Source of the DNA: Planctomycetota bacterium
GTDB lineage: Bacteria > Planctomycetota > Phycisphaerae > Sedimentisphaerales > Anaerohalosphaeraceae
Assembly: GCA_019456225.1 (NCBI GenBank)
Contig: VRUI01000006.1
Coordinates: forward strand, 1-64,000
Reading direction: 5' to 3'
DNA: 64,000 nucleotides
A program made the translations under genes and the position numbers. Position 1 is the stretch's first letter. Each line of letters starts with the position of its first letter. The notes beneath the pieces are model-generated. The model worked only from the letters and a program-made list of their open reading frames with translations, ran no database searches and was not told the origin of the DNA. This document shows positions 8,952 to 34,447 of this stretch, in pieces.

Positions 8952-10190
8952 CCTCTCCATCAGAGCTACAGGAATTTGACATGGGTGAGAATTCTTACCT
9001 TTTGAAACATTCTTCTCTAATTGTAGGTCAGCAAACCAATCATATATAGTAGTTCCACTGCTGCCGTGCTTTATAAGTTTCTTAACTTTTTTGTCTTTAG
9101 GATTTTTATAGGGTTGTCTGACCATATTGTAGTCAGGTGTTGTGTTATAAATATTGATGAGTCTAAATGCTCTACTGATATTTGAGCTATAGCACCATGC
9201 CAATACTTCATCAGGTTTTCCTAAGGCAGGATAAATGAGAGACATCATCTCTTCAGGATATTGAATTATAGCAGAAGGCAGACCTCTGAACATTTTCATC
9301 ATCTTAATATACTCAGCATCAGGAAGATTGTCAGAGTACTTATCATACCCAGCAAACTTGATATTATAGGGAGGATCAGAGATTACAATAATATCAGCAT
9401 CAGGAGATTCTTTTTTCAGTGCTTTTATTATGCCAGGGAATAGCTCACGGCAGTCACCATGGTATAGCCTAATATCATCTGACTTAGAAGCAGAATTACT
9501 CAGTAGTTTTTTTCTATCCCTTTCCCTGTCCCTTACTCTTTTCTTGACCAGCAAGTCTTTGACTATTTCGTCAATAGTCATGTCGTCATTTTTCAAACGT
9601 ATTTTGACAACTCTATTTTGGAGTTTAGAATCTAATCTTGCAAGATGGAGTAACTCATTTTTGTTGTTAGCAAGGTCAGACTTTAGTATCATCTTTTTCA
9701 GGTCAGGAGGTATATTGTTGGCGATTTGGACAACATGCTCAATAGTTCTGCGACCGCTACCTGTTTTATTTGAAGTATCTGCTGTAAAAGAAACGAATTT
9801 AGTTCGGTTTGTTTCTTTATGTCCTCTCCCTGGTCCCCTTTTAATCGACTCGGGATACATTGTTTCATAAATGTCTTTCCTTTTTTGCAGGCATTCTGCT
9901 CTTTCTAATACGCTGAGTTCTTGCCTGATGAGGTTCTCGTCAATTTCTGCTAAATCTGCCTTAAGCCCTTTCTCTGTAGTTATTGCAGGGATAGTCTTTT
10001 TGCCCAACTTTTTATAAGCTTCAAGTCTGTGTCTTCCAGTTACCAGTTGGTATTGCTTATTTACTGAGATAGGATGAAGTAATCCTATTGTTGTGATGCT
10101 CTCAGCAATCTCAAGAACTCTTTCTTTATTGGCTACTCTTCTTCCCCGTTTGATTTTTATCCTGTTAATACTGATATTCTTAACTTGCAT
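8790..10190 (-). CDS. Second ParB-domain / DNA methyltransferase fusion
   Basis: The 466-residue protein has an N-terminal ParB-like nuclease domain (about 3-100, with YQLVTGRHRLEAYKKLG at 48-64, a GxHR variant of the GxRR box). A middle helical region follows, then a beta-class methyltransferase with motif IV SDPPYNIKF at 271-279 and motif I DPFAGVGTT at 427-435. I start it at ATG 10190; an in-frame TTG at 10208 is less likely. It is not a close copy of the plus-strand fusion at 950-2257: the ParB boxes and the linker differ. It is convergent with the small-gene run on its left. Phage-type fusions like this probably methylate specific sites for self-protection. Confidence 0.85.
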   Translation of the reverse strand: MQVKNISINRIKIKRGRRVANKERVLEIAESITTIGLLHPISVNKQYQLVTGRHRLEAYKKLGKKTIPAITTEKGLKADLAEIDENLIRQELSVLERAECLQKRKDIYETMYPESIKRGPGRGHKETNRTKFVSFTADTSNKTGSGRRTIEHVVQIANNIPPDLKKMILKSDLANNKNELLHLARLDSKLQNRVVKIRLKNDDMTIDEIVKDLLVKKRVRDRERDRKKLLSNSASKSDDIRLYHGDCRELFPGIIKALKKESPDADIIVISDPPYNIKFAGYDKYSDNLPDAEYIKMMKMFRGLPSAIIQYPEEMMSLIYPALGKPDEVLAWCYSSNISRAFRLINIYNTTPDYNMVRQPYKNPKDKKVKKLIKHGSSGTTIYDWFADLQLEKNVSKGKNSHPCQIPVALMERLIILLTKKNTIVVDPFAGVGTTGSACRLTGHRFIGIEVSKKYYQLARNRLLNI

Positions 10191-10585
10191 AATTAGTTCC
10201 AATCTCAATTATTTGGCAGAATATTCTAAAATCTGTTAACATTGTATTGGTGCTCATAAGTAAGATCAAGAAGAAAATGAGTAAATATTGGGAAATGGAA
10301 TAGGATGCAGTCAAATCAGACACAGGAACCCCCTCTGGCAGCCCCCGGTTGGCTCATGTTGGGTAATAGGCATTACGTTGCCACTGGGGGTCAAAACTCG
10401 TGAGAACGGATACTGGTGGGCTGGGAGTTATGAAATTAGACAAGAATTAGGTGATAGTTGGATAGGGTTAAAATCTATTATTTTTTGGGGAGAAAAATAG
10501 ATGGGAGGGAAAAGGGCAGAAAAAAGTAATTCTTTTTTTAGCAATTTCTGTGAGACTCTGATGGTAAGGGGTATGCCTATGTGGA
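10191..10585. other. Intergenic stretch without a convincing gene
   Basis: This 395-base region lies between the second ParB-methyltransferase (divergent start at 10190) and the end of the DUF5677-like gene. A 70-codon plus frame at 10288-10500 lacks a ribosome site and protein-like composition. No strong terminator or repeat is visible; short T-runs near 10480 and 10535 are not preceded by good stems. Confidence 0.4.
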
Positions 10586-17671: not shown

Positions 17672-19830
17672 GACTCTGTGCCCCCCTTTACTTGATTCTT
17701 CACTGCACTCTTCAACCAAATTAAACCATCCTTAATATATTTAGGTAGTATTGGAATTGCTTCCACATCATCATTAACAACAATCCTATATAAGAGTTCA
17801 TTTGAAAAATCACTCTTACTGCCAGATATTTTTTTTTGCAATTCATAAGACTTTTCTTTTAGATTTTCTTTATCTATTGGATTCCCCACAATCCCTTTAT
17901 AAATATTAGGCTTAATAATTTCCAACACGGCATTAAGAATGTCATTTTTATAATTGGCTAATATAAAAGATTCTTCAAAACTGGTTGCAAAATAACCTTC
18001 TACTGCATTAAGCTGAAAAACAACAAAAAGATTATCATCTTCAAAATAATCGCTCAAATTATCAATCTTTTCCTTATTAGGATTATATTTAACAATAGTC
18101 TTATTTGTTGTTGTTAGATTATTTAAATCGCTAATCTGCACATGGCTTTCCTTTTCAATATCAGTCCTTTTTATATCTAAGTCAGTGATAATTAAGGTCG
18201 GAACTTTGAGCAACTTAATCAGAGGGTGGTAAACAAGGCCGTGGGCACCATTGATGTTAAAAATAGAAATATAATATTTATTGAGTTCTTCATCTTGATC
18301 AATGTAATAAGAAAGCAAGGTTTCTTCTGTAACGCCTTCTACAAAAATAACAGCATCGGAGAAGAACAACTCTGAAACTTTATACTTAATATGTTTTTTT
18401 AAAAACTTCAGGTCATCAGAAAGATTCTTTTCCTTCATTTTCTTTTCCACAGGTGTTTCTACAGGTGTTTCTACAGGTATCTCTACAGGTGTCTCTACGG
18501 GTGTTTCTATTTCAGTTGGTGCTTCCGAAGCGTTTACATCTTCCATTACGTTTTCATCATTCAAGTTTACTACATTAGAAAAATTATCAACAATGGTTAT
18601 GTAACTTATGTTATTGAATGAATTACCACTATGAATTTTACTATTCAAAATATGAGAAGAATGGGTTGTTATTATAAGCTGGCTATTAATTTCCTTCTTC
18701 ATATCCGCTATCAGGTAGGAAATGGCATCGTTAATATGCTTAATAAATAACTCTTGCATCTGTGAATGCATAAATGCTTCTGGTTCTTCAATGCAAATCA
18801 AATTTACCTTACTATGACATTCTTGCTGTGGATATCTTTCGATATAGTCAATCAGTTCCCCAATGATTGTCATCAAACTGGAATATCCTAAACCAAATTG
18901 CTCTTCAGGAATATATAATTCCCCTTCTTTATATTCATACTTAATTATATTAGTCATTAAGGTATCAAAGGTTAAATCTGCACTCAATTCCACTTCTAGC
19001 CTATCACTAGACTCAATTTTACCTAAAGCCTTATTTATAGATTTGGTGTGCGCCTTTGAAACACTTGTAGTAATTTTTTTATTAATTTTTTCTATTTCAC
19101 TATCTACCGTGCTAGAAGCACTGCGATTTTTCTCTGCTTTATATCTAAAGTTAATGATACGATTAAACGTTTTAGACAAGCTCTTGTCATCAATAATTTT
19201 ATTTGCACTAATGACTTTTATTTTAAATAAATCATTAAGTTTGAATTTGTTTTTATCTATTAAAGCACCTTTGGAATCATAGCAATTCAATTTAAACTCG
19301 GTACTGTTAACTATTTCCAAAAACTTTCTAAATAATATTGATTTGTCTTTATATTTTGAAATGAGCAATTTCGTTTCTTCTACAAATTTAGTAGTTTCTT
19401 TTATCTCATATTTTAAGATAATTTGACAGTCTCTTTCTTTATCACCCGAGGTAACGTTTTCTATATTCATAAAGGGAGCGATATTCGTAACTAAATCACA
19501 GTTGCTATTAAAATCAATTGCAACTTGCACTTCAAACTCAAGGCTAGGAAATTGTTCAAAACTTCCTTTTAGATATCCCTTTAGCAGGCTATTTAGATAA
19601 ATAAAATTAAAATCATTTGCTTGAAACTTGTTCTCTGTTATCAACTTTTTTAAAGCTTCTATAACGGTTGTTTTTCCCGAATTATTCTTCCCGACAATCA
19701 ATGTTGTTGATGGTGCTATATTGATTTCCCCAGGCTTCAGGGGATCACCTTTTGCGCCTACAAACTCTATAACATTGTTTTTTTTACCAAACTTCCTGAA
19801 ATTAGTAATCTTTAGACTTTTTAAATGCAT
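17668..19830 (-). CDS. OLD-family ATP-dependent nuclease (GajA-like)
   Basis: The 720-residue protein has an ABC-type ATPase head with Walker A GKNNSGKT at 47-54 and Walker B/signature LICIEEPEAFMHSQMQ near residue 340. Its C-terminal TOPRIM nuclease has FVEGVTEE near 497 and the acidic pair in ITDLDIKR. Between the two lies a repeat of five ETPVE-like units. AGGAG precedes ATG 19830. The gene starts by overlapping the stop of the NucS-like gene (TAATG) and ends with ATGA into the helicase. OLD-plus-UvrD pairs are class 2 OLD / Gabija systems that cut phage DNA. The length and the repeat insert are atypical. Confidence 0.85.
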   Translation of the reverse strand: MHLKSLKITNFRKFGKKNNVIEFVGAKGDPLKPGEINIAPSTTLIVGKNNSGKTTVIEALKKLITENKFQANDFNFIYLNSLLKGYLKGSFEQFPSLEFEVQVAIDFNSNCDLVTNIAPFMNIENVTSGDKERDCQIILKYEIKETTKFVEETKLLISKYKDKSILFRKFLEIVNSTEFKLNCYDSKGALIDKNKFKLNDLFKIKVISANKIIDDKSLSKTFNRIINFRYKAEKNRSASSTVDSEIEKINKKITTSVSKAHTKSINKALGKIESSDRLEVELSADLTFDTLMTNIIKYEYKEGELYIPEEQFGLGYSSLMTIIGELIDYIERYPQQECHSKVNLICIEEPEAFMHSQMQELFIKHINDAISYLIADMKKEINSQLIITTHSSHILNSKIHSGNSFNNISYITIVDNFSNVVNLNDENVMEDVNASEAPTEIETPVETPVEIPVETPVETPVEKKMKEKNLSDDLKFLKKHIKYKVSELFFSDAVIFVEGVTEETLLSYYIDQDEELNKYYISIFNINGAHGLVYHPLIKLLKVPTLIITDLDIKRTDIEKESHVQISDLNNLTTTNKTIVKYNPNKEKIDNLSDYFEDDNLFVVFQLNAVEGYFATSFEESFILANYKNDILNAVLEIIKPNIYKGIVGNPIDKENLKEKSYELQKKISGSKSDFSNELLYRIVVNDDVEAIPILPKYIKDGLIWLKSAVKNQVKGGTES
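18449..18508 (-). repeat. Five 12-bp tandem repeats inside the OLD nuclease gene
   Basis: Five in-frame copies of ACAGGTGTTTCT (plus strand; two have small changes) encode a repeated P-V-E-T / P-V-E-I linker between the ATPase and TOPRIM domains. Such repeats change copy number readily without breaking the frame. Confidence 0.85.
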
Positions 19831-20435
19831 TAATTACTCCTCATATTTTTCTTTTTCCACAACTGTTGATTTTGGTCAAGAGCAAGGATGTCAATAAAAC
19901 CCCCGGATATTGGGTACTCAACGCCACTTCTTTCCTTTTTGTCTACATACAATTCCAGCCCAGATTCTATCAGATTTAAATTTTTTGCTAAATAATCTCT
20001 TAGATGTGCTTCTGCAGCAAAGGCAGTGTTGATGTTTTGGTCAGACGCTGTTCTTTCAATAACAATAGGCTCATCAAGTAATTCATTATGAACATCAGAG
20101 CCTGTCTGCCGAACTATCATCTTGCCATTGTCTCCCATACAAAGTTCCCAATGGCCGTGTCGCTTAGGATCATAAAATTCAACAAGACCGTATCCTGGCT
20201 TAAAAAGAAAATCATACTTGCCCGTGCATTTTCTGGGTCTGGAATTTTCAGGCCAGTTAATGCGTGATTCTACGTTTACGCAAGAACTTAATATTGTGCA
20301 CTGAATCGTATTATCTTTGGTTCCAGGGTAGTGCTGTTGTATCCATTTGACAATTGCACCATTTGTCGTTTCACCTTCAAGGGATTCAACTGCTTCTCTT
20401 ACCATTTTTAATACTGTAGGCTTTCCGTTCGTCAT
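19830..20435 (-). CDS. NucS-like PD-(D/E)XK protein lacking its C-terminal ExK motif
   Basis: The protein has an N-terminal helical region (about 1-60), a central region ending near HGHWELCMGD, and a C-terminal segment AEAHLRDYLAKNL...GGFIDILALDQNQQL. That segment resembles the start of NucS/DUF91-type PD-(D/E)XK nuclease cores, in which an ELK motif normally follows at once. Here the chain instead ends with WKKKNMRSN, so the catalytic ExK is missing. Its stop overlaps the OLD start. I prefer ATG 20435 (201 aa), with GGAG upstream, over ATG 20450. It may be an inactive DNA-binding remnant or a partner subunit. Confidence 0.55.
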   Translation of the reverse strand: MTNGKPTVLKMVREAVESLEGETTNGAIVKWIQQHYPGTKDNTIQCTILSSCVNVESRINWPENSRPRKCTGKYDFLFKPGYGLVEFYDPKRHGHWELCMGDNGKMIVRQTGSDVHNELLDEPIVIERTASDQNINTAFAAEAHLRDYLAKNLNLIESGLELYVDKKERSGVEYPISGGFIDILALDQNQQLWKKKNMRSN

Positions 20436-20553
20436 CTCTCGTTTCTCCATGAAATATTAATTAGCTGTTTAATCATAGATTGACAGCCAGTTTGACCACA
20501 TTAGTGTTTTTGCAACTTCGTCAGGCATTTTAGTATCCCTTTTGAAATCAACG

Positions 20554-21924
20554 TTACCTTATAAATTTCCTGGTAAGTGAAACAATAAACACTGCCATTA
20601 TCGCAGCACCTAATACAGCTTCTGTAGAAGATAATAATCGTGAGAATCCCGGAGTTGGTTTAATGTCGCCATAGCCAAGCGTAGTAAATGTTACTGTACT
20701 AAAATAGAGACAAGTGCCGATAGAGGTGCTTTCAGTACCTGTGTTTCCACTTTTGTCAATCCCACCAATTGTTAAAAAAAGAATCGCCCAAATCAATATT
20801 ACAGCACATCCAGTTATCAGCGGTCTTAAAGGTCTTTCTCCGTACCCAAAAAACCATCGCCCAATTACCACTCCTAACCACTGAAATAACAAATTACTCT
20901 TTAACTTCCTGAATTTTACATTAAAAGGATTCAGAGTTGCATTCTTTTGATTGTTCACACTTTCAGCACACTTATGCTGAAAGTGGTAGATGCCCTCCAT
21001 TTCTGAATCACCTGCTTGATGAGCGGTTTGTTTGGCAACTCTGTAAGGTTCTATCGAATCACCCGGCCTTGAAAATGACTTGAAGTCTGTATCTAAAAAA
21101 AGTCTATCATTGAAATGATTATTACGGTCAATCAATACGCTATTATTGAATTCTGCTTTTCGGAATTCGGCATGGTCGTCGAAATGGTTATCAACATACC
21201 TTACAGGACAGTCAAAACGGACGTTCCAAAATGAAACCTTTCCGTGAAAGGAGTTATGTAAAAACCTCACTCTGTTCCTTCGTTTGTCCTTTTTCCCAGA
21301 ATATTCCAGAAAATTCGCAGCTTCAAAATTTGTTCTGCCCTTAATTTCACATTTATCAAAATCGAGTTCGTATTCAAAAGTTCCATTTTTGAAGAAAGCA
21401 TCATCGCGGAAGATGACATCTAAAAAGTGTACGTACTCCTTCCAAATACATCTATCAAAATTGGCAAAGTATTGAAATTCTGTTTTCTTGTGTTCTCCGA
21501 CCGATGGAGACTCTTCGCTTTCAAAGGCCGCCATCGCGTTGAATGTCGATCCGGAGAAGTTCGCATCCTGCATAAAAACCACTCCTGCAAACCGGGTCTT
21601 GCCATCAAAAAAGGTATTTCCAAATTCCGCATCGCCATGAAATTGAGTAAATAGAAATATCCCCCCATCAGGGAATTTGCAATTTTCAAAAATGGCATCC
21701 TGTTCAAAAACTGCCTTGCTGAAAACGGTACTGTGCAAAAAAGTAGCACCTGAGAAATCGGCATCACTATGAAATGTTATGTTGTGAAAATATTCACCTG
21801 CTGGATCTTCCGGAAACTCCATATCGGAAAAATCTATCGTGCCCTCAGGTACTGCATCAGCAACTCTTTGCCTCTGATCTTTCCAGAATTTTATAGTGTT
21901 ATCTGTATTAAAAATATCAGCCAT
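20554..21924 (-). CDS. Pentapeptide-repeat protein with K+-channel pore
   Basis: The 456-residue protein has an N-terminal pentapeptide-repeat helix (about 36-270, F-x-x-A/x-x-F units such as FSGATF and DANFSGSTF). A hydrophobic helix around 365-385 is followed by a pore segment with the potassium selectivity filter TLGYGD at 415-420 and a second transmembrane helix near 430-450. The architecture is that of an Ion_trans_2 channel fused to pentapeptide repeats. GGGGGAG precedes ATG 21924, one base after the 4-TM gene's stop. Its place between two nucleic-acid defence modules suggests a membrane effector that depolarises infected cells; this is inference. Confidence 0.75.
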   Translation of the reverse strand: MADIFNTDNTIKFWKDQRQRVADAVPEGTIDFSDMEFPEDPAGEYFHNITFHSDADFSGATFLHSTVFSKAVFEQDAIFENCKFPDGGIFLFTQFHGDAEFGNTFFDGKTRFAGVVFMQDANFSGSTFNAMAAFESEESPSVGEHKKTEFQYFANFDRCIWKEYVHFLDVIFRDDAFFKNGTFEYELDFDKCEIKGRTNFEAANFLEYSGKKDKRRNRVRFLHNSFHGKVSFWNVRFDCPVRYVDNHFDDHAEFRKAEFNNSVLIDRNNHFNDRLFLDTDFKSFSRPGDSIEPYRVAKQTAHQAGDSEMEGIYHFQHKCAESVNNQKNATLNPFNVKFRKLKSNLLFQWLGVVIGRWFFGYGERPLRPLITGCAVILIWAILFLTIGGIDKSGNTGTESTSIGTCLYFSTVTFTTLGYGDIKPTPGFSRLLSSTEAVLGAAIMAVFIVSLTRKFIR

Positions 21925-21925
21925 A

Positions 21926-22558
21926 TCACCACTCCCCCTGCTCTTCTATGACGGCCTTGCGAAGTTTTCGACCACTCATATATGGCTGTAATAAGGAAAA
22001 AATAATACCACCCAAGCAGGCAAATGGATAAAACTTCCAAGCTAACAGCAATTTGGAAGACATATCACCTGGTGAATACAAGAACTTGACTATGCTCAGG
22101 CAAATTATGACAAACAGGGATGCCCAATAAAAGACTTTAATATTTCCAGGGGGATCGCACCATGGAATACACTTTATTAGCTGATATTCTAAGAATTTCT
22201 CAGGGCAACGAGGCCATCTTTTTAGCATTGATTTCTCAATATCCAGAAACTTACTTGACTCAAATTTAGCTAACTGAAGTGTGAGGTAGCGAAAATTATA
22301 GCCAAGAGCAATTGTGTAAACACATGAGATCATTAGAACAAACAAAACAGCATACATGCCAAGAACATATATAAGAGCGTCGTTACGGAATTCAGAGGAA
22401 TGCAAGAAAATCAGTGCAGCGATAGCTGGTCCAAGTATCGCCAAAAAGCGAAGCACGTCCTGTTCCCTATGGCGTAAAGCCTCTAAAAATAGCTGATGTG
22501 TTTGCAGAAGAGCTTTTTGTTGAAGATCTTTAAGTTTAATATTCTTTTGTTCTTCCAT
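21926..22558 (-). CDS. Four-transmembrane hypothetical protein, 210 aa
   Basis: The 210-residue protein has a short polar N-terminus and four predicted membrane helices (about 39-56, 63-85, 136-158 and 165-185), with a soluble stretch between the second and third. The start ATG 22558 is 9 bases past the methyltransferase stop, and the gene ends one base before the channel gene. I do not recognise its family. Close coupling to the channel suggests that the two act together in the membrane. Confidence 0.65.
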   Translation of the reverse strand: MEEQKNIKLKDLQQKALLQTHQLFLEALRHREQDVLRFLAILGPAIAALIFLHSSEFRNDALIYVLGMYAVLFVLMISCVYTIALGYNFRYLTLQLAKFESSKFLDIEKSMLKRWPRCPEKFLEYQLIKCIPWCDPPGNIKVFYWASLFVIICLSIVKFLYSPGDMSSKLLLAWKFYPFACLGGIIFSLLQPYMSGRKLRKAVIEEQGEW

Positions 22559-22567
22559 AATTTAACC

Positions 22568-25500
22568 TTAATCATCCAAGCCATAGAGTTTTGTAACAAT
22601 CTTATCTATCTCCGATTCCCATTTTTCACAATTTATTCCTCCTGCATCCAAGCATTTCTTCACTAGCTTTTCAATAGTCTTTTTCTCTCCGGATGACGCT
22701 TTGGGGATAGGAAGCTGCTCAACAAATATTGTCTGCAATGTTAGTCTTCCACCTTTGTCTTCATCACCAAGAACAGAGCAAACCCTTTTTAAATATTCCC
22801 ATGCTGATGATGAATTAAGTATGCCAAGTAAATACATATTTCCAGTTGGTATTGTAAAAACTGTTTTTAGTGGGTAGATTCCAGAGTCATCGAAAGCAAA
22901 ACGTCTCTCTTTTGCAATTTCAGGGTAATGAATCTTTGGGGAATCATAAAGGCCGTAATAAGTACACGGCCTTAGTTCCCACCAATGATTACCCTGGTCC
23001 TGTCTGGCCTTTAATTCATTCTCCCATTTTTTTAAATGGCTGAAGATAGCACGATACTTATCAATTTCTACATTAATAGGAGTAACAATAATCCACCTGT
23101 CTTTATCTCGAATATGCCATTTGCGTACATCATCTCCTTTTGCCATTGGTTTAATTAAATCTTCGCTTGCTGGGTCCTCCTCGATCAATTTCTCTCTTGT
23201 TTTTGAATCAATAACAAATGCTTTGTTGAAACCTGTCAGTATGCCTCTGTAAATTTCGCCATTTACATATTCCTTTAATGAAATGCCGGAGGCCTCCATC
23301 TTGCGAAGGGTTTTAATGGTTTCAGCGTCTGTTAAATTCCAGTCTTCACCTTCAATTGCATCTGAGGGCAAAACACTTCCAGATTGACGAATAATAGCTT
23401 TTACGTCAGGATAAGGGCTGTCGAGAGTTTTTACCTGCGTAAAGGTTGTTTCTGATTTTGTTTCTGTTTTCTGGGCTACAAAGATCATAGGGAAAGTTGC
23501 AGCTGTTTCAAAAACCGGCAATTCACCAAAATCTGTAACGGAAATAATATTGCACTTTTCTGCAATATATCCTCTTAATTTTTTGCCATAATTCGCTCTG
23601 AACCATTTATTTGGTGAAATAAAACTTAGCACCCCTCCCGGAGCTAATAATTCAACGGCACGAGTGTAGAAATAAGTATATAAATCAGCAGTACCTACAA
23701 ATGTATCTTTATAAATATCTTTAAGTACAAGTTTGTCATCCTTAATAAGTTCCTGGCGAATATAAGGAGGGTTTGCAAGTACAATATCAAAGCCACCAGG
23801 CTCAAAAGTAGTAACTTTATAGTCTTTCAGTTCATCAATGCCTTTTTGTATCTCTTTTTGCCTTCGACTTGACATGAAAACTTCAGCAAAGTGTACATGC
23901 CATGCAATAACACCTTGGCCATATGCCGTGCTGGTATCTGAGGCAATTTCATCTTCTTCCTTTTTGATTTCATCGTATAGTTGTTTTTTACGATCTCCAT
24001 GAGCAGTAAGATACTCATCTTTTTTTATGACAAGTGTTTCTGAACGCTGTTTCATTTGCTGCAGGAATAGCAGTTTATCACTGTCATAGTCAAGAGGATT
24101 ACAAGGCCCAAGCACAGCGTCTCCAGTTTCAATCTTGAAATCAAGATTTGGAAGTGGCTGGGGGCTATCAGCTTCTACCGCAAGCGAAAGCCAAAGCCTA
24201 AGTTTGGCAATATTTGTTGCAAATGGGTCAATGTCTACACCATAAAGGTTGCGGCTGATTGCTCTAAGTTTTAATTCATAATGGAAATTAGGTTCAGCTC
24301 TGAGTTTTTGATTCTGTAATGCACGACGGATCGCCATAAGTTCCTGTAAAAGGCCAAGTAGATATGCACCAGACCCACAGGCAGGATCTAATGCTTTCAA
24401 TGTTTCCAGATAATACAATATATCATCAGCATCTTTTTCTGTTAGACTCCCGTCTTCAAGCTCATGTTCATCGACTAACTTCTCAATGGCCTCTCGAGCA
24501 GCAGATGTTTTTTTAAAAAGATAACCCTTGATGGCTTCACGGCACATAAATGACACTACTGCCCTTGGTGTATAGTAACTGCCTGATTCATGTCTGCCAG
24601 TCACAAGTTCCTCAAAAACCTTACCAAGCATTTCAGGATCAACAGCAACTTCGATGTCTAATGGAGTTGACTCTTCGACTGTAAAATTGTATTTGTAGAA
24701 AAGGCCATCAGGTCCAAGAATATCTGAAAAAGCATTGTCAGGAATATCATCAACCTTACCATCAAGATTTTCGTCTTCCTCAAACAAGCCTCCATTCAGG
24801 AAAACCGTGCTGCCTACCGCTTCAAAATCCTGCTGCCCTTCTATTGCTAATGCCACAAAGAACAAGGGGGATAGCCGACTTTTGAAGAAAGACTCACCAT
24901 TTAAGCCGCCCGCAGCATACAAATTTGCAAGATAATCTGGCGAATCTCCAAATTGAATCCAACGCTTTTTTTCAAGAAACCGGAGAAACATCAAACGGTT
25001 CATCAGGGTCTGTGTATATAGCCGCAACTCCTCATCTTTCAATTTATTAACCGAAGCAATCGCTTTTTCTAGCCCACCAAATATCTTTGCGTATTCTCTG
25101 TAGAACTCTTTCGTAACAATCTCAATAGAGAATCGCTCTTTGAGATCATCGAAGCATTTGACTCTGCCGGGCTTTAATAAATATTCCTGAATGGTATGAG
25201 TCTTCGTTTCCGGGCCAAGAAAAAAAGAAAGTCTTCGTGGATTGGAAAAGTCCTTGGTGATTTCCCTGCCTTCTAGTTTGAGTTCCAACGTAACCAGCGA
25301 GAGGCGAAAATTCGCTGTTTTTGTAGAAATAAACAATATCAATGCCTGCTCCTTACCATGGCTGGCAAGTATGCGGAAGGTTTCTCTGGACAGCGTGACT
25401 CGGGGATCGTTCTCGGAGTGATGTTTGATCTCAAAGACTGGCATATCCAGCGATGGGACTTCGCCTATTTTTGTGACCTGTTTGATATAGTCAGGCTTGA

Positions 25501-25600
25501 AATCGATAGGTTCTTCTGTTATCTCGAAATCCTCAGGTAAAAATGTATCTCTAAAGAAATCCAGATAGTCCGCTCTTTTGTATTCTTCTTTAAAATTCAT
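22568..25600 (-). CDS. Eco57I/type IIG-like N6-adenine DNA methyltransferase
   Basis: The 1010-residue protein has methyltransferase motif I DPACGSGAYLLG (around 405), motif IV ANPPYIRQE (around 610), a preceding helical region, and a C-terminal target-recognition-like region (TaqI-specificity type) ending near LPIPKAS. The N-terminus has VFEIKHHSEND, an E-x-K in a short beta context that could be a remnant nuclease site. The start ATG 25600 is three bases after the stop of the PLD-SNF2 helicase, so the two are a unit. Helicase-plus-methylase pairs resemble DISARM or type I-like modules, but drmA and drmB are not here. A restriction-modification or methylation-gated defence role is inferred. 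Confidence 0.8.
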   Translation of the reverse strand: MNFKEEYKRADYLDFFRDTFLPEDFEITEEPIDFKPDYIKQVTKIGEVPSLDMPVFEIKHHSENDPRVTLSRETFRILASHGKEQALILFISTKTANFRLSLVTLELKLEGREITKDFSNPRRLSFFLGPETKTHTIQEYLLKPGRVKCFDDLKERFSIEIVTKEFYREYAKIFGGLEKAIASVNKLKDEELRLYTQTLMNRLMFLRFLEKKRWIQFGDSPDYLANLYAAGGLNGESFFKSRLSPLFFVALAIEGQQDFEAVGSTVFLNGGLFEEDENLDGKVDDIPDNAFSDILGPDGLFYKYNFTVEESTPLDIEVAVDPEMLGKVFEELVTGRHESGSYYTPRAVVSFMCREAIKGYLFKKTSAAREAIEKLVDEHELEDGSLTEKDADDILYYLETLKALDPACGSGAYLLGLLQELMAIRRALQNQKLRAEPNFHYELKLRAISRNLYGVDIDPFATNIAKLRLWLSLAVEADSPQPLPNLDFKIETGDAVLGPCNPLDYDSDKLLFLQQMKQRSETLVIKKDEYLTAHGDRKKQLYDEIKKEEDEIASDTSTAYGQGVIAWHVHFAEVFMSSRRQKEIQKGIDELKDYKVTTFEPGGFDIVLANPPYIRQELIKDDKLVLKDIYKDTFVGTADLYTYFYTRAVELLAPGGVLSFISPNKWFRANYGKKLRGYIAEKCNIISVTDFGELPVFETAATFPMIFVAQKTETKSETTFTQVKTLDSPYPDVKAIIRQSGSVLPSDAIEGEDWNLTDAETIKTLRKMEASGISLKEYVNGEIYRGILTGFNKAFVIDSKTREKLIEEDPASEDLIKPMAKGDDVRKWHIRDKDRWIIVTPINVEIDKYRAIFSHLKKWENELKARQDQGNHWWELRPCTYYGLYDSPKIHYPEIAKERRFAFDDSGIYPLKTVFTIPTGNMYLLGILNSSSAWEYLKRVCSVLGDEDKGGRLTLQTIFVEQLPIPKASSGEKKTIEKLVKKCLDAGGINCEKWESEIDKIVTKLYGLDD

Positions 25601-25603
25601 ATG

Positions 25604-28600
25604 CTAAATCAACTCCTCTGATAAAATTAATGATTCCTCTCCTTCTTCAATTTTATTTTCACGTTCAATAATGCTTACGATGTAACGGTGAGGGACCTGG
25701 CTATAGAACTTTTCAAAATCTGAAAGCAGCTTTCGGCTGTCTATCGCCCGTATTATCTTTGAATACCTGCCGGGCAGGGCATCCAACTGCTGCAAGACAT
25801 AAAGCAAATCCTGTAAATAATCCTTCTTTTCCGGCAGTTCTTTAATAAGGACGCGAACTTTATGGATAGTGTCCTGCTTGGCTTTATTCATAGCCACTTC
25901 TGAGCGTTTGCTAAACAGGTTTTCTTTTAGTGCGGCGTACATAGGCTCAAAGTCGTCTGTGACTTTTTTGGGCTTTTCAGAAATCTCCGCCTCGAACAGG
26001 TTCAGTGCCTCGGAAATATTGATGGATTGACACTCACCGAGTTGCGATGAAGTCTTAAAAACGTATTCGCCTCCTTTCCTGGCAAAAACAATTACACCTG
26101 AGAGGTCTTTCTTATGGCTTCGACGAACACGGCAGCGTTTGGGTAAAGCTACCGCCTTTTCGATGATTTCGGGGTGTGTACTTCGCAGGTTTCGGATAAA
26201 GTTTTCATGGCGTACCTCTGGAGAAAGCTCTTCCTGTGCCGTCATCTGCTTACGGAACTCTTCTGCAAAAAATGACTGCAGCTGCTCATCGCTGGTCAGC
26301 ACCTTTGTATCTTCACCCATTAAGGCGTGGATCATAGCGATCTTTAGCGTTGATATTCCCTTAACGCGAGTTTCCCTTTCGCCAGTTTTAGTCGGGAAAA
26401 AATTGTATATAAACAGTTCATCAAAAACCTTCTTATTGATACGGTTGATACGGCCAACACGCTGGATCACGCGGGTTGGGTTATAAGGAATGTCATAGTT
26501 GAATACAATCCCTGCCCTGTGGAGGTTGTAGCCCTCGGAAATGGCATCCGTAGCGATAAGCACATCATAGTCGTCAGCCTGTGTTTGAGACCCGGCATCA
26601 AAGTTGGTGCGAATGGTCTCTTTGTTTGCCTTGGTCGAATCTTTACCGGAATACTTGAACAGCCGCAGCCGGTCTTTAAGTTTATCAAAGAGATAATCGG
26701 CAGTGTCGGCAAACTCTGTAAAAACTACTATCTTGCGTTTAGGGTTTTCTTTCAGCTTTGCTGCCATTACCCGTTCAAACTCTTCTAACTTGGGATCGTG
26801 ACGCGGGCCATCAGCAAACCACTCATCACGAATTTCCTTAAGGATTTCGAGGTCTTTTTCAACATGCTTGATGAAGTTAATGCCAAGTTCCTTCTTCTCA
26901 ATGAACCAAACGCCTTTTTCTTTAAGGGCTTCAATGCTGTCGTCGAAGTTGATTTTCTGAAGTTCTTCGTCAATATCTTCCCCCGAACCCTCTAAGAGCG
27001 AATCCACATCAGGAAGCTGCCCCTTTTTATATATCGGGACCAATCCGGCTTTTTCATACCAGTCCTGAACCAGTTCAGTAGATTTTATCAGAGAATCCAA
27101 AGTTGACTGGAACGCGAATATTGAACTTTCAAATCGCCGGACAAGAAGGCGTTTCATGAATTTAGCCAAGTTGGCCTGCCCCTGTTTGAGCAGGTTTTCA
27201 TCAATGCCCATTTCCTCGGCTATCTTTTTCTTGTAACTCGCATAGTTCTTGATGTAATTAGTAGGCATGTATCGAGCTCCGATAAAGCCTTTCTTTTGCT
27301 CTTCCGGTGCAATGGTTTTGAGTGTATTTTCGTAAAGCTCTGAAATGTCGCCGAGATCATAATCCATCTCCTGCGGATCATTAACCGTTGGGAAACTGAT
27401 CTTCTGACGTTTTAGGTCGGCCTTATACTCATCTATTGCTTCCAGGTCGAGTCGAGATCGGCGAATAACAAGAGGCGATAAGATGTCTCGTATTTCAGAG
27501 GCTACCTTTTGTATACGAGCGTCTATCGCTACGGCACTTTCTGATCCGTCCTTCTGGATTTTGCCAATTAGTTTATACTCTGCAACAAGTTTTTTGAACT
27601 GATATGAGAGATTGTCAACCGTCTGAATCGTCGAGCGGGTAGGAATCTGGAAGAGTTTGATCATCGAGAAGATGTCCTGGGGCTGATTGTTGAATGGCGT
27701 TGCCGACAGGAGCATGACCTTATTTCGCTGGCAAAGCTGATGCAGGTTGGCATAATCTTCAGTAAGTTCGTTGCGGTATTTGTGAGCTTCGTCAACGATG
27801 ATCAGTTTTTCCTCATCGTATGAATTATCATCAACAGCCTGCTGGATCATTCCACTGCTATAAACGCGGGCATTGAAACGGAAATCAAAGCGATAATCTT
27901 CCCATTGCTTTTTTAAATGGGGCGGAGCAATGACGATTGTTTTAAGATTGAGGTTGTTTGCGACCGCTGAGGCGATTACACTTTTGCCCAGACCAACTAC
28001 ATCTGCAATGATTACACCGTTGTGGGCTTGAATAATATCCAGCGTCTTTCGTATCGCATCAATCTGATATTTCAGATTAATATAGCGGCCAAGGGTGATC
28101 TCATCCGGTAAACGCAGGTTATCGCTGTTGCGAAGAGTGAAATACTCTTCCAATACACGGACATAAAGCAGAAACGGATCAGGAAGCAGTTCCAGCCAGA
28201 CTTTTTGTACCACTTCCTTGAGAAAATCATCCAGGTTGTCTTTATCGACTATGGTCACTGCTGTCTGCCATAGCTGGTCAAAAATACTCATTGCTTCTTT
28301 ATAGTTTGCGGCTTCGCGTGTGATGACATTAATTTCAAATCTACCCCGCAGTCCCTGATGTGACAGGTTGCTTGAGCCGGTAATAACAGTGCCGGGGAAT
28401 TCGCCTCCCTGACTGGCCTCTGTTTTGTTCTCGAAGATATAGAGCTTTGCATGATTAGGCTGTATGGTTTTCCTGATCTGCAGAGTGCCATCCTTCATCT
28501 TATTGAGAAATAGCCTAAAAGCATCCTGTTTTTCTTTGGTATCGAAAAAGTCCGTGTCGTTAAACAGGCTTACTAAAGACTTGAAATAATTATCCCGAAT

Positions 28601-28846
28601 CTTGCCGCGTGGGGCGTTAATGTCTTGCAGTACTTCAAATTCCCGGATTTTGTTTGTAATATCCTTTTCAACTTCCATGCCAACCAAGATACGGATTTCT
28701 TTCTCAGCTAAATTCTGGTAGAGCTCCTGAAAGCCGGAAAAATAGAAATAACCAACTAATGCATACAGTTTTTGTGATGAAGGTAAGATATTATTGACAA
28801 CATCCGAAAGCAATCGTTGTTGATTTGTTATGAACTGAGTTGTCAC
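25604..28846 (-). CDS. PLD-nuclease / SNF2 helicase fusion
   Basis: The 1080-residue protein begins with a phospholipase-D-like half-site, HxK at 132-134 (NHAKLYIF) with GSSN at 157-160, as in PLD nucleases. A superfamily-2 SNF2-type helicase follows: GLGKS at 285-289, DEAH at 352-355, SATPF at 381-385, and a late VIQRVGRINR arginine-finger motif. The start is GTG 28846, supported by GGAGAG upstream. It is immediately followed by the methyltransferase. In DISARM, PLD, SNF2 and methylase functions are on separate genes; here PLD and helicase are fused in one protein, so this is a variant or a distinct system. Confidence 0.85.
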   Translation of the reverse strand: MTTQFITNQQRLLSDVVNNILPSSQKLYALVGYFYFSGFQELYQNLAEKEIRILVGMEVEKDITNKIREFEVLQDINAPRGKIRDNYFKSLVSLFNDTDFFDTKEKQDAFRLFLNKMKDGTLQIRKTIQPNHAKLYIFENKTEASQGGEFPGTVITGSSNLSHQGLRGRFEINVITREAANYKEAMSIFDQLWQTAVTIVDKDNLDDFLKEVVQKVWLELLPDPFLLYVRVLEEYFTLRNSDNLRLPDEITLGRYINLKYQIDAIRKTLDIIQAHNGVIIADVVGLGKSVIASAVANNLNLKTIVIAPPHLKKQWEDYRFDFRFNARVYSSGMIQQAVDDNSYDEEKLIIVDEAHKYRNELTEDYANLHQLCQRNKVMLLSATPFNNQPQDIFSMIKLFQIPTRSTIQTVDNLSYQFKKLVAEYKLIGKIQKDGSESAVAIDARIQKVASEIRDILSPLVIRRSRLDLEAIDEYKADLKRQKISFPTVNDPQEMDYDLGDISELYENTLKTIAPEEQKKGFIGARYMPTNYIKNYASYKKKIAEEMGIDENLLKQGQANLAKFMKRLLVRRFESSIFAFQSTLDSLIKSTELVQDWYEKAGLVPIYKKGQLPDVDSLLEGSGEDIDEELQKINFDDSIEALKEKGVWFIEKKELGINFIKHVEKDLEILKEIRDEWFADGPRHDPKLEEFERVMAAKLKENPKRKIVVFTEFADTADYLFDKLKDRLRLFKYSGKDSTKANKETIRTNFDAGSQTQADDYDVLIATDAISEGYNLHRAGIVFNYDIPYNPTRVIQRVGRINRINKKVFDELFIYNFFPTKTGERETRVKGISTLKIAMIHALMGEDTKVLTSDEQLQSFFAEEFRKQMTAQEELSPEVRHENFIRNLRSTHPEIIEKAVALPKRCRVRRSHKKDLSGVIVFARKGGEYVFKTSSQLGECQSINISEALNLFEAEISEKPKKVTDDFEPMYAALKENLFSKRSEVAMNKAKQDTIHKVRVLIKELPEKKDYLQDLLYVLQQLDALPGRYSKIIRAIDSRKLLSDFEKFYSQVPHRYIVSIIERENKIEEGEESLILSEELI

Positions 28847-29683: not shown

Positions 29684-30400
29684 TTAGGTTTTTTCAATAG
29701 CCCAATCAAGACTTGAGAGTTTTTCTGTTATACCCTCAAATCGACTTCCATAGATAAGCTCAAACATCTTCAATGACACAACTCCAACCTTCACGGTTGT
29801 CTGCAAGCCAACTTTGCAAATATCTGTATCACCAGACACAAGAATATCTACACTGCCACCATCGATTTTTATATCGCTTGTAGTAATGTGCCCAAGGAAA
29901 TTTGGATGGGCACCGTAATCAAGAGTATGTTCGTATAAGTCAGAAATCTTACTACCTAACTCTGAACTATGATTTATTAGATTCTTTTTAAGCTTGCTAT
30001 AGGAAAACATATTCCTACAAACTTTCCGCGATTTCTCATCATCTTCTCTTTTAAGCCATATAAACATTCGCTCTGGTGAGTCAGTGTCTAATGTAGGGTC
30101 GGTTTGAATGAAATGAGCATAAAGAGCATTTTCAATGCAACCACGTAAGAGCATATATGTTTCCACGACTTGCCCAGATGTAATTAGGCGTACAGCCCCA
30201 AGAAAAGTACTGTGACAACGCGATACAAAAAGTGGCAAAAGTAATTCCTTAGAATATCTATGCTTTATCACACTGATTTCATTGAACAATTCATCAATTG
30301 TAAACATTGCCTGAATTACGGGGGTATTTTCGAAATTATGCAATGTGGCAATAGTATTATCTTGAGCACTTATTATGAATTCTAACAATTTATGCGACAT
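29684..30400 (-). CDS. DUF5677-like hypothetical protein, 238 aa
   Basis: The 238-residue helical protein contains LLRGCIENALYAHFI near 85-100, an R...EN pattern followed by a long helix and a conserved H (YGAHPNF), the general layout of DUF5677. It is half the size of the gene at 10586-12133 and not obviously a copy. AGGAGG precedes ATG 30400. It follows the DUF4238 gene by 48 bases and the two may be co-transcribed. The function is unknown; relatives sit in genomic islands. Confidence 0.55.
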   Translation of the reverse strand: MSHKLLEFIISAQDNTIATLHNFENTPVIQAMFTIDELFNEISVIKHRYSKELLLPLFVSRCHSTFLGAVRLITSGQVVETYMLLRGCIENALYAHFIQTDPTLDTDSPERMFIWLKREDDEKSRKVCRNMFSYSKLKKNLINHSSELGSKISDLYEHTLDYGAHPNFLGHITTSDIKIDGGSVDILVSGDTDICKVGLQTTVKVGVVSLKMFELIYGSRFEGITEKLSSLDWAIEKT

Positions 30401-30448
30401 TCTTAAACCTCCTATTGTTGGGTTGGAAGGGTTGATGATATGAGCGAG

Positions 30449-31393
30449 TTAATCTTTATCTATACCCCATTTATGAATCACAGAATCTCCAACTCTATAA
30501 GCTCTGAGTCGTTGTTTATTTCCTTTAGCCGATATAATCTGTTCTAATAGTTTTTCCGATTGCACAGGCGAATATACAAATCTTTGCGATGAAAAACATT
30601 CTTGCTCATTCACTAATTCAACAAAACCTTTTTCGGCTTCCTTGAATTCAAATGCACTGTTATCTGATCTGCAATATGGTCTGGCGACAAGAGCTATCTT
30701 CTTGTTTAATGGACAAATAACCCAACTTTGAGGACTTGATGGTCCTGTTTCTTGAGAGTTATCATGCATTTGACCAAATAGGACAGGTGTATCAGAAGTA
30801 ACGTAATAATCCTTTTCTAAAAAAAACAATATCCATTTCTTATTGCATAATGATTCTGACATTTGAATCGCACCATCAATCATATATCGAAGGCTTACGT
30901 GCGGTAAAATTTTAGTTTTGATAACAGAAGTTATATCATTATTCTTAATAAGTTTTTTTATTATCTCTGGCGGCTCTGGAAGCCTACCCATTTTATATTC
31001 ATTCTGAGTCATTATATCTACCTGGTGTTTGAGGGCAGAGTGACACCCGTCTCTAAATGATGGTCCACGAGTTAACAGAAGAGCAACATAAAATGCAAGA
31101 GTACCCTTGTCTGACTCGGACAAGTCATACTTGGGATTGAGTTTTTTTACTATCTCTATGCCAGCTTTTTCCACGTCATTGAATGCATCTTCAAACATTT
31201 GAGTAGTAGAACCGTCAGGAGTTGGTTGCTCATAGTAATAATCTTCACTGCATATATTATCAACTGAGCGTTTGCCTGTACATTTTCCATATTTCTTATC
31301 ATACCCCCATATCAAACTATTTTCACCGTCAATTGTATAACCTTTTAAATATGACGCTGGAACATAGTGATGATTTATCTTTTCTTGGCTCAT
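30449..31393 (-). CDS. DUF4238 family protein
   Basis: The 314-residue protein begins with the DUF4238 signature HHYVPASYLKGY (8-19) and continues with LIWGYDKK, then YVTSDTPVLFGQ and WVICPLNKKIAL in the middle, the conserved HHYVP...SDxPV...PL pattern of the family. DUF4238 proteins are frequent in accessory regions and have been suspected as nuclease-like defence proteins, but the activity is not shown here. ATG 31393 has an AAAGG-type site upstream. Confidence 0.8.
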   Translation of the reverse strand: MSQEKINHHYVPASYLKGYTIDGENSLIWGYDKKYGKCTGKRSVDNICSEDYYYEQPTPDGSTTQMFEDAFNDVEKAGIEIVKKLNPKYDLSESDKGTLAFYVALLLTRGPSFRDGCHSALKHQVDIMTQNEYKMGRLPEPPEIIKKLIKNNDITSVIKTKILPHVSLRYMIDGAIQMSESLCNKKWILFFLEKDYYVTSDTPVLFGQMHDNSQETGPSSPQSWVICPLNKKIALVARPYCRSDNSAFEFKEAEKGFVELVNEQECFSSQRFVYSPVQSEKLLEQIISAKGNKQRLRAYRVGDSVIHKWGIDKD

Positions 31394-32191: not shown

Positions 32192-32875
32192 TCAGGCTCT
32201 TCCCAATACCCTCATATCATTATCTATCCCTTCTCCACAACACTCCTCAAATATCTCACAATGCTTACACTCCCATTTAAGATCAGGAGCAGGTTGTTCT
32301 TCAGAAGAAAGAACCTGAGCTATACTATCACTCAATTCACAGAACTCATTTGCTCTGACAGATACTTTTGCACTAAGGTCTATCTCAACAAGGAGATTAT
32401 CATCAGTCATTCCTAATCGGTAGTCTTTATTTATGAGCATCAGGGAGCAGGAAGATATCTCCAATCCCGACTGGAGAGCAACAAAGGTTGTATAAGCAAT
32501 GTCATTAATATGCTCATCACTCTGATTAACTGCTGACTTAATCTCAATCATCTTCCATTTAGAGTTGTTCCTGACCAGGATATCTGCCTTGGTTATGTAG
32601 GGACCACTCTGAAAGGTAGCTTCAAATATGGTCGATACTTCTGGGTTGGCAAGCAGTTCTCTTGTTCTATTGATACAAGTCTCATTACTCCCTGACACTA
32701 ATACTCCAGTAGGGAATAGGTTTCTTGCTCTTTCCTGCACTTCGATGCCCTCATCGATTCGGAGCTGGTCAGATGGGCTTGTAGTGGGTTGTGTAGGCTG
32801 TTGTTGCTGCAGGTGGCCGTATGTCGGGCATTTCAGAGAGGAGAGGAATAGGTTTTTAGTTATGTATTTTGGCAT
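32192..32875 (-). CDS. PD-(D/E)XK nuclease with C-terminal Cys cluster (Cas4/DUF2779-like)
   Basis: The 227-residue protein contains the core IFEATFQSGPYITKADILV...WKMIEIKSAV. The D (in ADIL) and the E-x-K (in IEIKS) form a PD-(D/E)XK active site. It ends with C-K-H-C...E-E-C-C, like the iron-sulfur cysteines of Cas4/AddB-type RecB-family exonucleases or the first half of DUF2779 proteins. It lacks the helicase or long C-terminal part of larger members. No cas genes or repeats are seen, so a CRISPR role is not supported. It lies 87 bases downstream of the integrase gene, on the same strand. Confidence 0.7.
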   Translation of the reverse strand: MPKYITKNLFLSSLKCPTYGHLQQQQPTQPTTSPSDQLRIDEGIEVQERARNLFPTGVLVSGSNETCINRTRELLANPEVSTIFEATFQSGPYITKADILVRNNSKWKMIEIKSAVNQSDEHINDIAYTTFVALQSGLEISSCSLMLINKDYRLGMTDDNLLVEIDLSAKVSVRANEFCELSDSIAQVLSSEEQPAPDLKWECKHCEIFEECCGEGIDNDMRVLGRA

Positions 32876-32962: not shown

Positions 32963-34447
32963 TTATGTTGATTTTTCCTTTCCAAAAAAGTATTTCTCAA
33001 TTCCCAAACAGAAGTCCTTCATTATACTTTTTCTTCTTTTAAGATAATGATCATCAACGGCTGGGACACTTCGTTGCCCCATTAAGTATTTGATTTTTTG
33101 ATCCCCATCCAGCTCCATTTCAGCGGCTGCCTGCCTGCACCCAGATCGTATATGCTTGAATTGAACAGATGAATCTACGTTAGTTTTTTTGTGTGTACGT
33201 ATTCGATACCATATGTTGCCAACAGCAGAGCGTGTAAGTTTGCCACCATTTTCATTGACAATTAGATATTTACTCTGATGTGGATAGTCTTGCTGATAAG
33301 CTTTTATCGCGGCTATGGTACGATCCCATAGATAGCAAGCCCTCGGAACCATTTTGCTTCTTCTTTGAGTTCGCTTGGAAGTTTTTAGCCTATTCATTAT
33401 TATAGTTTTATTCTTTAAATCAAGGTGTCTTGTTTCGATATCACCAAGTTCTTTAGGTAGATATGCTCCATTTGCTGCCAGCAACATGCACAGTATTGCC
33501 CTTGTGTCATTTTTTCGTTTTGCAACTTCAAGCATTGTTCGAAGATCTTCTGGCTCAATAGGATTGGGGTCTATCTCGTCAGCTTCGGGTCGTGTGAAAA
33601 TACATAAATCTAAGATTCTCCTGAGTTCTTTCTTTTGAGCCTCTGTGCTTTTTCTGTCTTTGAGCACGTAGCTCATTACTGCTCGGACTTTGACAAATCT
33701 ATTATCTAAAGTTTTGGCTGCCCAAATCCCATTGGTATATTTTTCCCATAGTGTATCTTCATATCGTTCGATATTTTCTGCATTTAGATCTATGGTTGTC
33801 GCCCCCTCGGTTATCAATGTAAATTCATCCCAGCAAGTTTCACTGAATTTTTTATCATAGCCTTCAAAACCCTCTCTTCTTTTAAGATACCAATCTCCAA
33901 TTTTTTTCAGGGTCAGTGGTTTCTCCTTTGGCTTCAAGTCATCGAGGTATGCAATTTCCTGGATTCCGATCTTTCTTGAGGCAAGGTTAGGGTCTCTGAT
34001 AATCAGTTCTCTCGCTTTTTTCCATATTAAGTCTTCGATAAAAGTAGTTTCATCAATCGTAATATTGCTCACAAATTCCTTTATAACAATATTAACACCA
34101 TTTTCATCAAGTCCCAGCTTTTCAAATAGCTCAAATATTTCATCTGAAATTCGGATAGTAAGTCTACCCTTGATGCTTTTCTTCTCATCGTCCTTTAGAA
34201 GGGTAAAGGTCTTTTGACCCTGCAATTTTTCCGCTAAAGCTTCATATTGTTGCATAGCCTTGTCGGGATCAACAGAGAATTTTTTCCTCTCCCGCTGAGC
34301 GGTTTTTGGGTCTGTATAGTAGCAGTAGTGCTGCCTATTAGATGACTCTCTTGATAGCCCTCCCAAGCCGATGGATTCGTTCCCAGCAATTACCTCATTT
34401 CCGTAAATTACATAGGTTGCCTTTGGTCCAGGTCTTTTTTTTGCCAT
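32963..34447 (-). CDS. Tyrosine recombinase (integrase) of the element
   Basis: The 494-residue protein has an N-terminal region with DNA-binding character and a C-terminal catalytic domain ending in the nucleophile Y468 (DDHYLKR). Several usual residues are changed. The first Arg box reads NGAYLPKEL rather than a G-x-R form, the His box is KHIRSG, and the late His is Q in LMGQRS. CGGAG precedes ATG 34447. It sits about 160 bases from a 20-base tRNA 3' end copy, as expected for a tRNA-integrating element. The domain call is firm; catalytic competence cannot be judged by eye. Confidence 0.8.
   Translation of the reverse strand: MAKKRPGPKATYVIYGNEVIAGNESIGLGGLSRESSNRQHYCYYTDPKTAQRERKKFSVDPDKAMQQYEALAEKLQGQKTFTLLKDDEKKSIKGRLTIRISDEIFELFEKLGLDENGVNIVIKEFVSNITIDETTFIEDLIWKKARELIIRDPNLASRKIGIQEIAYLDDLKPKEKPLTLKKIGDWYLKRREGFEGYDKKFSETCWDEFTLITEGATTIDLNAENIERYEDTLWEKYTNGIWAAKTLDNRFVKVRAVMSYVLKDRKSTEAQKKELRRILDLCIFTRPEADEIDPNPIEPEDLRTMLEVAKRKNDTRAILCMLLAANGAYLPKELGDIETRHLDLKNKTIIMNRLKTSKRTQRRSKMVPRACYLWDRTIAAIKAYQQDYPHQSKYLIVNENGGKLTRSAVGNIWYRIRTHKKTNVDSSVQFKHIRSGCRQAAAEMELDGDQKIKYLMGQRSVPAVDDHYLKRRKSIMKDFCLGIEKYFFGKEKST

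What the first reader, a model, noticed from the sequence alone, without database searches (positions are those of the whole stretch)
22568..28846. PLD-SNF2 helicase fused in one chain and coupled to an Eco57I-type methylase
In DISARM the PLD nuclease, SNF2 helicase and methylase are separate genes with drmA/drmB. Here PLD and helicase are one protein, drmA and drmB are absent, and the methylase N-terminus has a possible ExK remnant. This could be a compact restriction system that joins recognition, cutting and translocation.
Basis: partly seen in the sequence, partly recalled or inferred. Interest (0 to 1): 0.65.

Follow-up and report, generated by a model that had tools for sequence, protein, structure and literature searches.

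The report
Two-gene motor-driven restriction-modification system
Two neighbouring genes encode a DNA-cutting motor protein and a DNA-tagging protein that are kept together in many distantly related microbes, and they most likely form a compact anti-virus system that marks the cell's own DNA and destroys unmarked DNA.

Summary
On the - strand, a 1080-aa PLD-SNF2 protein (25604-28846) is followed 3 nt later by a 1010-aa Eco57I/PglX-like adenine methylase (22568-25600). The genome shows no DrmB (MZB/DUF1998), no DUF499, and only helicase-motif cross-hits to DrmA. It is not DISARM.

The pair is real and widespread. In a search made with the helicase alone, 70 of 74 informative loci have such a methylase beside it, from Parcubacteria to archaea. 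In the reverse search of 392 genomes, all 16 carriers of the methylase's N-terminal domain have the helicase (or its remnant) next door.

The PLD active site is invariant in 71/71 helicases. The methylase's 'ExK' is complete in only 6/43, so PLD is the likely nuclease. The N-domain's divergence tracks the helicase (r about 0.85). The half from NPPY onward does not (r about 0) and has been swapped between distant systems. Four relatives carry a silent inverted specificity segment plus a serine invertase.

Best reading: an ATP-dependent restriction-modification system working like a Type ISP enzyme split in two, with a PLD nuclease. Biochemistry is untested. New variant of a known kind: PLD-ATPase fusions and MTase-SNF2 pairs are separately known.

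The parts
25604..28846 (-). R protein: PLD nuclease - SNF2 motor - C-terminal region, 1080 aa
   Evidence: ORF; Pfam; 71-sequence alignment; model, mean pLDDT 85.8
28247..28846 (-). PLD nuclease domain of R (residues 1-200)
   Evidence: PLDc_2 and RE_NgoFVII matches
28334..28453 (-). PLD active-site motif H132-x-K134 ... G157-S158-S159-N160 ... E171
   Evidence: H132, K134, G157, S158, N160, E171 invariant in 71/71
26312..28141 (-). SNF2/SF2 motor core of R (residues 236-845)
   Evidence: Pfam; VIA-align Z 17-20 to SNF2 translocases
25607..25636 (-). Conserved C-terminal tail of R (residues 1071-1080), candidate docking strand
   Evidence: tail motif conserved after a variable linker; strand in model; docking is inferred
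22568..25600 (-). M protein: Eco57I/PglX-like adenine methylase, 1010 aa
   Evidence: ORF; Pfam; 43-sequence alignment; model, mean pLDDT 83.4
25121..25600 (-). N-terminal domain of M (residues 1-160): restriction-enzyme-like topology, probable coupling domain
   Evidence: topology; tracks R; no Pfam family; 16/16 reciprocal linkage
25424..25432 (-).
   Evidence: present here, complete in only 6/43 relatives
23801..25120 (-). Constant front half of M (residues 161-600): helical coupler and MTase motif I region
   Evidence: intermediate correlation with R, r about 0.5; aligns to BrxX and Type ISP
22571..23800 (-). Exchangeable back half of M (residues 601-1010): NPPY motif (23762-23773) and TaqI-like TRD
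   Evidence: r about 0 with R and swapped between distant systems; TaqI_C

Best explanation
The two genes are the R and M subunits of an ATP-dependent restriction-modification system. The M protein methylates adenine at a short target read by its C-terminal recognition domain. When the target is unmethylated, M (through its N-terminal domain and helical coupler) hands the DNA to the R protein, whose SNF2 motor translocates along double-stranded DNA. Its PLD domain has one HKD-type motif per chain, so it should need two R chains to form an active site, and it cuts when two complexes meet or pair. In layout this is a Type ISP enzyme (nuclease-motor-coupler-MTase-TRD) split into two polypeptides, with PLD in place of the Mrr-like nuclease. 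Shown here: the pair, its conservation in both search directions, the invariant PLD and motor motifs, the non-conserved ExK, the co-divergence of the M front half with R, and the swapping of the M back half. Inferred: physical complex, methylation, translocation, collision-triggered cleavage and phage defence.
For: The search used the helicase alone. 62 of 80 loci have the methylase within 3 kb downstream on the same strand, 51 of them within 100 nt and commonly with a 4-nt overlap. Eight more have it upstream and six contigs are too short to tell, so 70 of 74 informative loci are linked. In the reverse search, the methylase N-domain occurs in 16 of 392 genomes, 15 with the helicase adjacent and the 16th with a decayed helicase adjacent. 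No third gene is conserved. PLD residues are invariant in 71/71; Walker A and motif VI occur in 71/71. The M model matches BrxX, LlaBIII, LlaGI, CamA and MmeI. N-domain distance tracks helicase distance (r 0.89 over residues 1-130; partial 0.86 given the MTase core).
Against: No biochemistry or phage data exist for this pair. Many loci are MAG contigs, and related loci are not independent. The N-domain's restriction-enzyme-like topology rests on one model without an isolated fold search. PLD dimers in SauUSI and CglI/NgoAVII are pre-formed, so the collision trigger is only one option. The window's own M does keep E57, K59 and acidic residues nearby.
Confidence: 0.7

Rival explanations
1. Two independent enzymes side by side: M is a self-sufficient Type IIG restriction-modification enzyme cutting with its N-terminal ExK domain, and R is a separate SauUSI-like Type IV nuclease that attacks modified DNA.
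For: PADLOC files M and all 43 relatives as Type IIG; the window's M keeps E57/K59 with nearby acids; SauUSI is a PLD-SF2 single chain (PMC7913695).
Against: ExK complete in only 6/43; linkage 70/74 and 16/16 in reverse; N-domain co-divergence with R; R lacks an SRA domain.
Confidence: 0.12
2. A relative of DISARM/ARMADA or of BREX-related systems, in which the SNF2-methylase pair is a leftover or a module that works with a YprA helicase, a DUF499 ATPase or other partners elsewhere.
For: SNF2/RapA-like helicase plus PglX-like methylase is a shared pair in DISARM class I and ARMADA (PMC12458937); HKD-Snf2 plus N6-MTase occurs in BR type 2 (PMC12839542).
Against: No DrmB, DUF499 or true DrmA in the genome; no third gene conserved around 80+ relatives.
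Confidence: 0.08
3. The pair blocks phages by methylation-sensitive DNA binding and motor activity (remodelling or stalling replication), with PLD cutting a minor or conditional step, as DrmC is dispensable in DISARM.
For: DISARM works without DrmC (PMC9142583); the SNF2 core resembles remodelers.
Against: PLD residues are invariant in 71/71, unlike a dispensable domain.
Confidence: 0.1

Closest known systems
Type ISP restriction-modification enzymes (LlaGI, LlaBIII)
   Same: Nuclease, SF2 motor, helical coupler, gamma-type adenine MTase and C-terminal TRD in the same working order; residues 134-1006 of M align to LlaBIII 648-1577, Z 23.4
   Different: Here two chains; PLD instead of Mrr-like PD-(D/E)XK nuclease; SNF2-type motor; extra N-domain on M
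CglI / NgoAVII (BceSIV) ATP-dependent systems
   Same: PLD nuclease plus SF2 ATPase plus methylase; PMC4267653 notes >95 homologues with PLD and ATPase fused
   Different: Their R carries a B3 recognition domain, the ATPase has Z1 and C domains and is a separate chain, and the methylase is a C5-cytosine enzyme active on its own
SauUSI (Type IV)
   Same: PLD-SF2 motor in one chain
   Different: C-terminal SRA domain reads 5mC; no methylase partner (PMC7913695)
BREX-related (BR) type 2 systems
   Same: N-terminal HKD nuclease on an Snf2 helicase, with an N6-adenine MTase
   Different: They contain DUF499 and DUF3780 proteins; their MTase has DUF1156 (PMC12839542)
DISARM class I / ARMADA
   Same: SNF2/RapA-like helicase next to a PglX-like methylase
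   Different: They are built around a YprA-family helicase; the DISARM core is DrmAB, with the PLD nuclease DrmC separate and dispensable (PMC9142583, PMC12458937)
Type IIG enzymes (REBASE/PADLOC REase_MTase_IIG)
   Same: M is filed there by profile
   Different: The expected N-terminal nuclease residues are not conserved in M relatives

Membership tests
DISARM | DrmB (DUF1998/MZB) present | tested here: not met
   no hit over cut-off in the whole genome
DISARM | DrmA (YprA-family helicase) present | tested here: not met
   DrmA profile meets only SF2 motif stretches (109-156 of 1043 positions) in R itself and in two other helicases
DISARM | separate PLD gene DrmC | tested here: not met
   PLD is fused to the motor; DrmC is dispensable anyway (PMC9142583)
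Type ISP | nuclease, motor, MTase and TRD in one polypeptide | tested here: not met
   two ORFs with a stop and 3 nt between them
Type ISP | Mrr-like PD-(D/E)XK nuclease on the motor | tested here: not met
   PLD domain instead
Type ISP | head-to-head sites and translocation-collision cleavage | not testable with these tools
   needs purified proteins
CglI/NgoAVII | B3-type recognition domain on the PLD chain and Z1 domain on the ATPase | tested here: not met
   no such Pfam match on R
SauUSI-like Type IV | C-terminal SRA domain | tested here: not met
   no SRA/SAD match on R
BREX-related (BR) type 2 | DUF499 ATPase in the system | tested here: not met
   no hit in the genome
Type IIG | catalytic PD-(D/E)XK nuclease fused to the MTase | tested here: inconclusive
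   residues present in the window's M but in only 6/43 relatives; activity not testable here
Type IIG | gamma-type adenine MTase with C-terminal TRD | tested here: met
   Eco57I 5.5e-42, TaqI_C 1.1e-8; NPPY in 42/43
ATP-dependent restriction-modification (general) | methylase and motor-nuclease encoded as a conserved unit | tested here: met
   70/74 and 16/16 linkage
ATP-dependent restriction-modification (general) | ATP-dependent cleavage of unmethylated target DNA | not testable with these tools
   needs purified proteins

The most novel reading that the evidence does not exclude
A widespread, unnamed type of ATP-dependent restriction-modification system. Its methylase carries an undescribed, probably non-catalytic restriction-enzyme-like domain that docks a PLD-SNF2 motor. 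Its recognition half, from the NPPY motif onward, is an interchangeable cassette, which some relatives switch by DNA inversion.
Probability: 0.55. Interest if true: 0.68.

Novelty: new variant of a known kind. Interest (0 to 1): 0.55.

Why it matters
Methylases of this kind are filed as self-contained Type IIG enzymes by a current profile library, while their real nuclease and motor probably sit next door under a generic 'helicase-related protein' label. If so, annotation, restriction-site prediction and defence-system counts are wrong for hundreds of genomes. The constant/exchangeable split of the methylase at the NPPY motif suggests a natural way to change target specificity while keeping the restriction motor, and the inverted cassettes with invertases in relatives make that directly testable by long-read methylation sequencing.

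Tried and rejected
DISARM: rejected. BR type 2: rejected. Viral contigs: only four weak helicase-motif matches, no pair. Search for a third conserved gene: only recombinases (8 loci) and an AlbA/Schlafen-like family (6 loci) recur. Invertible repeats or a second TRD in the window itself: none of note. Pfam and PDB sequence searches with the N-domain: no family, no relative. Haloferax pHV4, where published annotation lists a 'Type IV' gene and a 'Type IIG' gene close together (PMC5867850), could not be read because the plasmid record is not held. VIA-align and Foldseek lists barely test M residues 1-160 and R residues outside 236-876, so absence of folds there means nothing. Full-text searches of the PMC library showed no description of this exact two-gene system, but subscription papers and REBASE itself were not searchable.

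Full report
What is there. On the minus strand, a GTG-started 1080-aa ORF (25604-28846) is followed after 3 nt by a 1010-aa ORF (22568-25600). The first has an N-terminal PLD domain (PLDc_2 60-193; weaker NgoFVII-type PLD), an SNF2 domain and a Helicase_C domain. The second has Eco57I, N6_Mtase and TaqI_C domains. Below, R is the PLD-SNF2 protein and M the methylase.

Not DISARM. The window is part of a 99-kb contig in a 4.45-Mb genome that is 95.8% complete. No MZB/DUF1998 (DrmB) match passes its cut-off. The DrmA profile meets only SF2 motif stretches, including one in R. DUF499 is absent. R scores 160 bits against DrmD, whose cut-off is 610.

The pair is a conserved unit. A scan of genome contigs with an alignment of R alone returned at least 576 relatives, of which the best 80 were kept. 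They come from many phyla, including Bacteroidales, Clostridia, Parcubacteria, Omnitrophota, Anaerolineaceae and the archaeon Methanoculleus. In 62 of the 80 a methylase related to M lies downstream on the same strand within 3 kb, in 51 within 100 nt, often with a 4-nt overlap. In 8 it lies upstream (five; L047, L060 and L094 seen as truncated 3' ends). Six contigs end too early to tell. That leaves 70 of 74 linked. A Bacteroidota plasmid copy (48% identical R) has the same order. Clustering all neighbouring ORFs shows no third conserved gene.

The reverse search also holds. A profile of the M N-domain found 16 carriers among 392 genomes of the window's phylum. In 15 of them R (E effectively 0 to 1e-231) lies on the same contig and strand next to it. 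In the 16th, G225, pieces of a decayed R lie directly upstream of a broken M. More distant PLD-helicases can pair with methylases that have other N-domains, for example G260 and a lactococcal plasmid.

Which domain cuts. In 71 aligned R proteins the PLD residues H132, K134, G157, S158, N160 and E171 are invariant, and Walker A and motif VI occur in all. In 43 aligned M proteins an acid at 57 together with lysine at 59 occurs in only 6, while R99, S101, R123 and T136 of the same domain are invariant. The AlphaFold model gives that domain the order helix, three strands, helix, strand, with E57 and K59 on the third strand. This is the order of the PD-(D/E)XK fold, but that identification is an inference from topology; the domain was not searched alone. 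Two solitary relatives of M in the same order of bacteria, without R beside them, instead carry a different HsdR_N-like N-domain with a PD...EAK pattern. So the PLD is the likely nuclease, and the M N-domain probably lost catalysis in most members.

How the parts divide. In 46 closely linked pairs the R and M trees correlate (Mantel r 0.61, 0 of 2000 permutations as high). Along M the correlation with R is 0.80-0.88 over residues 1-175, about 0.5 over 175-575, and about 0 from 600 on, with the break at the NPPY motif, 610-613. The N-domain's link to R survives correction for the MTase core (partial r 0.86), while the core's falls to 0.30. The zero is not only saturation. L068 and L037 have back halves 57-86% identical, front halves 19-48% and R 31%; L028 and L011 show the opposite, with front mostly 60-97%, back 10-41% and R 73%. 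The recognition half, from the catalytic loop through the TRD, has therefore moved between systems, while the front half stays with its motor. The N-domain, and perhaps the conserved tail of R that follows a variable linker (strand 1071-1079 in the model), are the best candidates for the contact. That contact is inferred.

Specificity switching in relatives. Four loci (L074, L095, L096 and Lactococcus cremoris pJM1F, L117) have an extra TRD segment in inverse orientation immediately behind M, inverted repeats joining it to the M gene (L117 321 nt 71%; L095 37 nt 89%; L096 34 nt 88%; L074 29 nt 93%) and a serine recombinase next to it. This is the arrangement of DNA-inversion switching known for Type I hsdS genes (PMC4948785). 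The window itself has none.

Mechanism. M from residue 161 aligns to BrxX residue 1 onward (Z 25.9) and to the coupler-MTase-TRD part of the Type ISP enzymes LlaGI and LlaBIII (Z 23-24). The R core aligns to SNF2 double-stranded DNA translocases (Z 17-20). Type ISP enzymes are chains of nuclease, motor, gamma-MTase and TRD that need two head-to-head sites and two enzyme molecules to cut (PMC3874165). The pair has the same parts in two chains with a PLD nuclease. PLD restriction nucleases build one active site from two protomers (BfiI, SauUSI; PMC7913695), so R should dimerise, either on convergence or beforehand. I hold the ATP-dependent restriction-modification reading at 0.7; the collision trigger is only one version of it.

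What is known and what is not. PLD-SF2 fusions are known (SauUSI; the >95 fused CglI/NgoAVII homologues in PMC4267653; PbeA in PMC10853773; BR type 2 in PMC12839542). SNF2 helicase with PglX-like methylase is a shared pair in DISARM class I and ARMADA (PMC12458937). I found no paper in the searchable library describing this stand-alone pair, the N-domain, or the exchange break at NPPY. PADLOC calls all 43 M proteins Type IIG. Published homologues of a haloarchaeal 'Type IIG' protein were already noted to lack a conserved N-terminal nuclease region, and one homologue had an m6A motif (PMC5867850); whether those are members of this family was not tested here. The verdict is a new variant of a known kind.

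Limits. The 80 loci are the best of more than 576, many are MAG contigs, and relatives are not independent. Correlations use identity over alignable columns. No complex was modelled and no biochemistry exists.

Noticed in passing
window 15305-19830: Intact-looking Gabija system (GajA 3e-197, GajB 9e-254) in the same orientation downstream, preceded by a 206-aa ORF (19830-20450) with DUF7669 and a weak NucS-like C-terminal part.
   Followed up: partly
window 20554-22558: Directly behind the methylase (9-nt gap) are a 210-aa membrane protein and a 456-aa pentapeptide-repeat protein with a C-terminal potassium-channel-like pore (TLGYGD). They may be co-transcribed accessory genes; not conserved next to the pair in relatives.
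   Followed up: partly
window 32963-34447 and 32192-32875: Tyrosine recombinase and a Cas4-like nuclease at the upstream end of the defence cluster, suggesting an integrated element; attachment sites not mapped.
   Followed up: no
L117 5425-10230; L095 3231-7797; L096 12149-17102; L074 6611-11524: Inverted silent TRD segment, inverted repeats and serine recombinase behind the methylase: predicted DNA-inversion switching of specificity.
   Followed up: yes
L169 5568-10879 (G225): Decayed copy of the whole pair (fragmented helicase, frameshifted methylase).
   Followed up: partly
window 8790-10208: ParB-N domain fused to an N6/N4 methylase, outside the cluster.
   Followed up: no
window 29684-31393: DUF4238 protein (30449-31393, weak match to a candidate phage-defence model) and a 238-aa unknown (29684-30400) just upstream of the pair.
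   Followed up: no
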